From contig NZ_KB900539.1 of NCBI RefSeq assembly GCF_000378945.1, positions 675,241 through 739,240 of the forward strand: 64,000 bases of DNA, given 5' to 3'. Both the position numbers and the translations under genes were made by a program. Source of the DNA: Methyloversatilis universalis EHg5. GTDB taxonomy: Bacteria > Pseudomonadota > Gammaproteobacteria > Burkholderiales > Rhodocyclaceae. Within the stretch, counting starts at the first letter, position 1. The number at the start of each line of letters is the position of its first letter. Shown piece after piece: positions 20,167-21,358 of the stretch. Below the pieces are notes generated by a model. It saw only the letters and a program-made list of their open reading frames with translations. It searched no databases and was not told the DNA's origin.

Positions 20167-21358
20167 ATGGCAAAGGGAAAGTTTGAGCGCACCAAGCCGC
20201 ACGTGAACGTGGGCACGATTGGTCACGTTGACCATGGCAAGACGACGCTGACGGCGGCGATCACGACGATTCTGTCGTCGAAGTTCGGTGGTGAGGCGAA
20301 GGCCTACGATCAGATTGATGCGGCGCCGGAAGAGAAGGCGCGTGGTATCACGATCAACACCGCGCACGTTGAGTACGAGACGGCCACCCGCCACTACGCT
20401 CACGTTGATTGCCCGGGTCACGCTGACTACGTGAAGAACATGATTACCGGTGCTGCGCAGATGGACGGCGCGATTCTGGTGTGTTCGGCTGCTGACGGCC
20501 CGATGCCGCAGACCCGCGAGCACATCCTGCTGGCCCGTCAGGTTGGCGTGCCGTACATCGTGGTGTTCCTGAACAAGTGCGACATGGTCGACGACGCCGA
20601 GCTGCTCGAACTGGTCGAAATGGAAGTGCGCGAACTGCTGTCGAAGTACGACTTCCCGGGTGATGACGTGCCCATCGTCAAGGGCTCGGCTCTGAAGGCG
20701 CTGGAAGGTGACAAGACCGACCTGGGCGAAAGGCGCGATCCTGGCGCTGGCCGATGCGCTGGACAGCTACATCCCGACGCCGGAGCGCGCGGTGGATGGG
20801 GCCTTCCTGATGCCGATCGAAGACGTGTTCTCGATCTCGGGTCGTGGCACCGTGGTGACCGGCCGTATCGAACGCGGCATCGTGAAGGTTGGTGAAGAAA
20901 TCGAAATCGTCGGTATCAAGCCGACGGTGAAGACCACCTGCACCGGCGTGGAAATGTTCCGCAAGCTGCTGGATCAGGGCCAGGCAGGTGACAACGTGGG
21001 CGTGCTGCTGCGCGGCACCAAGCGTGAAGACGTTGAGCGTGGTCAGGTGCTGGCCAAGCCGGGTTCGATCAAGCCGCACACCCACTTCACGGCCGAGATC
21101 TACGTGCTGTCGAAGGATGAAGGTGGTCGTCACACCCCGTTCTTCAACGGTTATCGCCCGCAGTTCTACTTCCGCACGACGGACGTGACTGGCGCGATCG
21201 ATCTGCCGGAAGGCACCGAGATGGTGATGCCGGGTGACAACGTTTCGATCACGGTGAAGCTGATCGCCCCGATCGCGATGGAAGAAGGTCTGCGCTTCGC
21301 GATCCGCGAAGGTGGTCGCACCGTCGGCGCCGGCGTGGTTGCCAAGATCGTCGAGTAA
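20167..21358 (+). pseudogene. tuf: Elongation factor Tu, first copy, with a 1-bp frameshift
   Basis: By eye this copy matches the second tuf gene (36880-38070) base for base, except for one extra A near 20731: GGGCGAAAGGCGCG here against GGGCGAAGGCGCG there. Its length is 1192 bp against 1191. The insertion shifts the frame after about codon 188, near the end of the GTPase domain, and gives a 242-residue product with about 54 foreign residues. Domains 2 and 3 remain intact only in another frame (20708-21358). G-domain motifs [19 protein letters not shown] and NKCDMVDD precede the break. It is either a true broken copy, with the second gene supplying EF-Tu, or a sequencing or assembly error; the perfect identity elsewhere favours error or a very recent mutation. 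The neighbours are those of a functional gene. Confidence 0.9.

What the first reader, a model, noticed from the sequence alone, without database searches (positions are those of the whole stretch)
20167..21358. First tuf copy is frameshifted by one extra A in an otherwise identical duplicate
Comparing the two tuf genes by eye shows the same sequence apart from GGGCGAAAGGCG here against GGGCGAAGGCG in the second copy, near 20731. The length difference is exactly one base. If real, EF-Tu comes only from the str-operon copy and the tRNA-linked copy makes a 242-residue GTPase-domain fragment. A fresh break in a gene normally kept identical by conversion would be striking. If false, it is a homopolymer error.
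Basis: seen in the sequence. Interest (0 to 1): 0.7.

Follow-up and report, generated by a model that had tools for sequence, protein, structure and literature searches.

The report
Probable assembly error in duplicated EF-Tu
One of the two copies of the gene for the protein-making factor EF-Tu looks broken by a single extra letter, but the draft genome shows the same kind of extra letters in other repeated sequences, so this is most likely an assembly error and not biology.

Summary
The tRNA-linked tuf copy (20167-21358, 1192 nt) and the second copy (36880-38070, 1191 nt) differ only by one extra A in the run 20729-20731, leaving a 242-codon frame. The genome lies in or near Methyloversatilis. 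All 12 full-length tuf copies found in 7 other genomes of the genus are 1191 nt and open. The most likely cause is a consensus error in a draft. The assembly has 100-N runs. One-base insertions recur in single copies of two other long repeats: one of three 23S genes, and one of three insertion-sequence copies, whose cluster includes the same GCGAAGGC to GCGAAAGGC change. Orthologous genes show no excess of frame switches, 5 of 371 against 5 of 375 in the reverse direction, by a scan that saw 68 of 102 planted ones. Two other family drafts have similarly broken tuf copies; in one, both copies. All 29 single-contig genomes among 49 examined have two open copies. No reads were available, so a real recent break (about 7%) is not excluded.

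The parts
20167..20895 (+). tuf1 (tRNA-linked copy), upstream frame: 188 native EF-Tu residues, then 54 out-of-frame residues, then a stop
   Evidence: Pfam PF00009 over residues 10-179
20729..20731 (+). run AAA, one base longer than in the second copy; 567 nt from the left and 629 nt from the right edge of the 1196-nt repeat
20708..21358 (+). downstream frame of tuf1 holding EF-Tu domains 2 and 3 (the start shown is mechanical)
36880..38070 (+). tuf2, intact 396-codon EF-Tu
19716..19800 (+). tRNA-Tyr upstream of tuf1
19901..19974 (+). tRNA-Gly upstream of tuf1
20014..20088 (+). tRNA-Thr upstream of tuf1
21404..21479 (+). tRNA-Trp downstream of tuf1

Best explanation
The extra A is a consensus error in a draft assembly. 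The two tuf copies form a 1196-nt near-exact repeat 16.7 kb apart. In the middle of such a repeat, short reads cannot be assigned to one copy and align preferentially to the error-free copy, so a one-base error in the other copy stays uncorrected. The cell most likely has two ordinary tuf genes. Shown: the difference itself, runs of N in the assembly, one-base insertions in single copies of two other repeats, and absence of the base in the relatives. Inferred: that these insertions share one cause, and the assembly step that made them.
For: (1) In the part of the genome taken, the chromosome contig has 100-N runs at C1:78068-78167 and C1:3852588-3852687 and single Ns at 364937 and 365240, the last two inside a repeat; contig C2 has a 100-N run too. 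(2) Of three 23S genes one has one extra G in a G run; all 7 copies found in 4 of 5 other genomes of the genus searched have the shorter run, and the fifth gave no match. (3) Of three copies of an insertion sequence (DDE transposase), two differ at 1-2 positions, while the third (C1:790614-791841) has 14 one-base indels within about 300 nt (12 insertions, 2 deletions, with 8-9 substitutions in the whole match; BLAST). One of them is GCGAAGGC to GCGAAAGGC, the tuf1 context. (4) 5 of 371 orthologues show a frame switch in this genome against G002, and 5 of 375 in the reverse direction. (5) In the family, G050 has one tuf copy with one extra C, and G152 has both tuf copies broken by different one-base indels, so such artefacts occur in this gene. 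(6) 29 of 29 single-contig genomes among 49 examined have two open copies. (7) A contig ends inside tuf in 7 of 12 other assemblies of the genus. (8) The repeat mechanism is described in PMC8812927 (passages seen).
Against: The run is only AA to AAA, a weak homopolymer. The sequencing technology of this genome is unknown to me and no reads were seen. The window itself has no N. The odd insertion-sequence copy also has substitutions (8-9 by BLAST, 25 by MAFFT) and could in part be real decay. The operon with the extra 23S base also differs from the other two by a small cluster of changes ahead of the rRNA genes, so it has some real divergence and the 23S difference could be real. The frame-switch scan is not fully sensitive (68 of 102 planted insertions seen) and in its main run did not see tuf1 itself; it did once tuf2 was masked. 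Runs of N may in principle be withheld stretches rather than gaps.
Confidence: 0.92

Rival explanations
1. The break is real and recent: a one-base insertion inactivated the tRNA-linked tuf copy after the last gene conversion, EF-Tu comes from the second copy alone, and the fragment (most of the G domain plus a scrambled tail) is degraded. The next conversion from tuf2 would erase it.
For: The rest of the copy is identical to tuf2. [quoted passage not shown] No N lies in the window.
Against: One-base insertions in single copies of two other repeats of the same draft; 0 of 12 full-length copies in the genus carry the base; 29 of 29 single-contig family genomes among 49 examined have two open copies.
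Confidence: 0.07
2. Recoding: the insertion is real and ribosomes skip one base at GAA-AGG-C, where AGG is a very rare codon, so that some full-length EF-Tu is still made and output is tuned.
For: The out-of-frame codon created is AGG, used 0 times in 3896 codons of four long genes of the window (tuf2 and three ORFs that I take, from order and size, as rpoB, rpoC and fusA). A slow AGG at a +1 site recalls the yeast Ty1 site (recalled, not tested).
Against: No relative carries it (0 of 12). Any extra A in GAA-GGC creates AGG, and the same insertion occurs in the odd insertion-sequence copy. Re-pairing of the P-site tRNA would be poor (inference).
Confidence: 0.01

Closest known systems
Residual errors in repeats of bacterial assemblies (as described in PMC8812927, Polypolish)
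   Same: One copy of a long near-identical repeat carries a one-base indel that the other lacks.
   Different: The paper treats long-read assemblies polished with short reads; the data type of this genome is unknown.
Duplicate tuf genes of Proteobacteria (one in a tRNA operon, one in the str operon)
   Same: Two near-identical copies 16.7 kb apart, one behind tRNA-Tyr, -Gly and -Thr; the same tRNAs flank one copy in G002, G050 and G152.
   Different: One copy reads as broken in this assembly.
   Same: One-base indels in otherwise near-identical tuf copies.
   Different: Different positions; in G152 both copies are affected.

Membership tests
Repeat-copy consensus error | Assembly is a draft with gaps or ambiguous bases | tested here: met
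   100-N runs and single Ns in G000
Repeat-copy consensus error | Same class of difference in single copies of other long repeats of the same assembly | tested here: met
   one of three 23S genes, one of three insertion-sequence copies; 1.38 of 4.09 Mb examined
Repeat-copy consensus error | No such excess outside repeats | tested here: met
   5 of 371 against 5 of 375 in the reverse direction; sensitivity 68 of 102; candidates not resolved one by one
Repeat-copy consensus error | Uniquely anchored reads lack the base | not testable with these tools
   no reads held
Recent tuf pseudogene | Frame broken, with an intact second copy in the genome | tested here: met
Recent tuf pseudogene | Break shared with a close relative | tested here: not met
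   0 of 12 full-length copies in the genus; a recent break need not be shared
Recent tuf pseudogene | Break confirmed in an independent assembly of the same species | not tested
   no second assembly of the species was at hand; the collections hold one genome per species
Programmed +1 frameshift site | Site conserved across relatives | tested here: not met
   0 of 12 copies carry it

The most novel reading that the evidence does not exclude
The insertion is real, and the slow AGG codon it creates lets a fraction of ribosomes skip one base, so that the tRNA-linked tuf copy makes reduced, tunable amounts of full-length EF-Tu.
Probability: 0.01. Interest if true: 0.75.

Novelty: not a real feature. 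Interest (0 to 1): 0.07.

Why it matters
Broken housekeeping genes in long repeats are easily read as evolution. Here the other repeats of the same draft serve as an internal control. If the break were real, it would be a natural strain with one working tuf gene, caught between gene conversions, which would be of moderate interest.

Tried and rejected
Looked for the base in relatives: 0 of 12 full-length copies in the genus have it; 9 of the 12 read GAA-GG at the site, and 3 (both copies of G008 and the one of G007) differ locally but are also 1191 nt and open. The copies cut off at contig ends (7 of 12 genomes) do not cover the site.

Four paper searches for the strain or its read type gave nothing that identifies them: Methyloversatilis with genome, M. 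discipulorum with PacBio, Methyloversatilis with ALLPATHS, M. discipulorum with FAM1. A search for tufA, tufB, gene conversion and frameshift together gave one paper (listing only). Papers seen as passages: PMC6134099, PMC5574714, PMC4109929, PMC8812927; all others as listings.

A first frame-switch scan by longest ORFs was spoiled by antisense shadow ORFs and was replaced by one ranking ORFs by homology. An rRNA alignment made without turning the minus-strand loci was useless and was repeated. A repeat pair with one gap (C1:78722-80455 against 3852688-3854420) was not counted, because the gap lies about 4 nt from the alignment end. Repeat pairs of 95.5-96.6 per cent identity were left out as too diverged, although one has eight small indels. 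On checking this report I found that the scan had missed tuf1 itself (its intact twin takes the match, and its two frames overlap), so I ran a control: with tuf2 masked tuf1 is seen, and 68 of 102 planted one-base duplications are seen as frame switches, 11 as partial, 1 as intact, 22 not selected.

Full report
Observation. The two tuf genes of the window are identical from 20165 to 21360 (36878 to 38072 in the second copy) except for one extra A in tuf1 in the run 20729-20731. The frame from 20167 ends after 242 codons; domains 2 and 3 of EF-Tu are open in another frame.

Where it is. So the genome lies in or near Methyloversatilis, environmental methylotrophs. It is held as one contig of 4,084,506 bp and one of 4,065 bp. 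tuf1 follows tRNA-Tyr, -Gly and -Thr and precedes tRNA-Trp; tuf2 sits 16.7 kb away in what by order and size is the str operon (gene names beyond EF-Tu recalled). The same four tRNAs flank one tuf copy in G002, G050 and G152.

Relatives. The genus search covered 13 genomes including this one. Seven relatives yield 12 full-length tuf copies; all 12 are 1191 nt with 396 open codons. Nine of them read GAA-GG at the site and three differ locally. Within the 5 relatives with both copies complete, the copies differ at 0, 0, 5, 10 and 12 positions, so identity is not strict. In 7 of the 12 relatives a contig ends inside tuf, which shows that this repeat is hard to assemble.

The assembly as its own control. 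In the 1.38 Mb of this genome that I took (of 4.09 Mb), the chromosome contig has two 100-N runs and two single Ns inside a repeat, and the small contig has another 100-N run. I read the 100-N runs as scaffold gaps. Long repeats were compared with each other. The three 23S genes agree except for one extra G in one copy; the 7 copies found in 4 of 5 relatives searched all have the shorter run, and the fifth relative gave no match. The operon with that extra base also differs from the other two by a small cluster of changes ahead of the rRNA genes, so it is not wholly free of real divergence. Three copies of an insertion sequence (DDE transposase, Pfam PF01609): two agree but for 1-2 positions in about 1.2 kb, and the third carries a cluster of small changes within about 300 nt and is near-identical elsewhere. 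The two alignment programs count the cluster differently (12 insertions, 2 deletions and 8-9 substitutions with BLAST; 11 insertions, 8 of them lengthening a neighbouring run, and 25 substitutions with MAFFT). The net excess is 10 or 11 nt. One of these insertions turns GCGAAGGC into GCGAAAGGC, as in tuf1.

Outside repeats. With 600 kb of G002 against 980 kb of this genome, 371 orthologous ORFs (143,221 aa) gave 346 intact, 20 partial and 5 with a frame switch; the reverse comparison gave 349, 21 and 5 of 375. Four of the five in each direction have the switch towards the N-terminal side, where mechanical ORF starts are often over-extended; I did not resolve them one by one. The main run did not flag tuf1, because the intact twin takes the match. 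A control on the 180-kb part around the window sees tuf1 once tuf2 is masked, and sees 68 of 102 planted one-base duplications as frame switches. So the scan has about two-thirds sensitivity and shows no excess in this genome; it does not show that there are no errors.

The family. Of 150 family genomes, 101 have a match at E 1e-100 and 49 have none (20 of those are listed and 29 are not). I re-examined 49 genomes: the 48 among the 101 that have at most 10 contigs, plus G008. Of these 49, 45 have two full open copies, 2 (this genome and G050) have one full and one split copy, and 2 (G028, G102) show only one partial copy (in G102 beside a run of N). All 29 single-contig genomes among the 49 are in the group of 45. 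G050's broken copy has one extra C at alignment column 611 and one substitution relative to its twin; it too is the tRNA-linked copy. In G152 (20 contigs, not among the 49) the copies are 1190 and 1192 nt and neither reads through in one frame. As EF-Tu is essential (recalled; the title of PMC5574714 calls it an essential gene), at least one of those breaks should be an assembly error, unless an unassembled further copy exists.

Mechanism. When one copy of a repeat carries an error and the other does not, short reads align preferentially to the error-free copy and leave the error uncovered (PMC8812927, passages). The tuf1 insertion is near the middle of the repeat (567 and 629 nt from its edges), the part furthest from unique anchors; so is G050's, whereas those of G152 lie nearer the ends (columns 63 and about 931). 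The cause is inferred; the read type of this genome is unknown.

If real. Loss of one tuf gene is tolerable: Salmonella lacking tufA grows, with EF-Tu limiting (PMC6134099, passages). The fragment keeps most of the G domain (Pfam PF00009 over residues 10-179, against 10-203 in the intact protein) but ends in 54 foreign residues and would most likely be degraded (inference). A recoding reading rests only on the rare AGG codon (0 of 3896 codons in four genes) and is not conserved.

Verdict. Confirmed as a sequence difference, most likely not a biological feature; low interest.

Noticed in passing
G000 C1:2711551-2714439 (locus L058): One of three 23S rRNA genes has one extra G in a run of G; seven copies from four relatives have the shorter run.
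   Followed up: yes
G000 C1:790614-791841 (L133): Insertion-sequence copy (DDE transposase) with a dense cluster of one-base indels, beside a near-perfect inverted copy at 792948-794165; probably poorly resolved sequence.
   Followed up: partly
L079 and L089 (G152): Both tuf copies of a family genome are interrupted by different one-base indels.
   Followed up: partly
L091 (G050) 1501-2692: tRNA-linked tuf copy with one extra C near its middle, in an assembly of 8 contigs.
   Followed up: partly
L005 and L018 (G012): The two tuf copies differ by four adjacent bases (nt 315-318), giving Cys in one and Val in the other at one codon.
   Followed up: no
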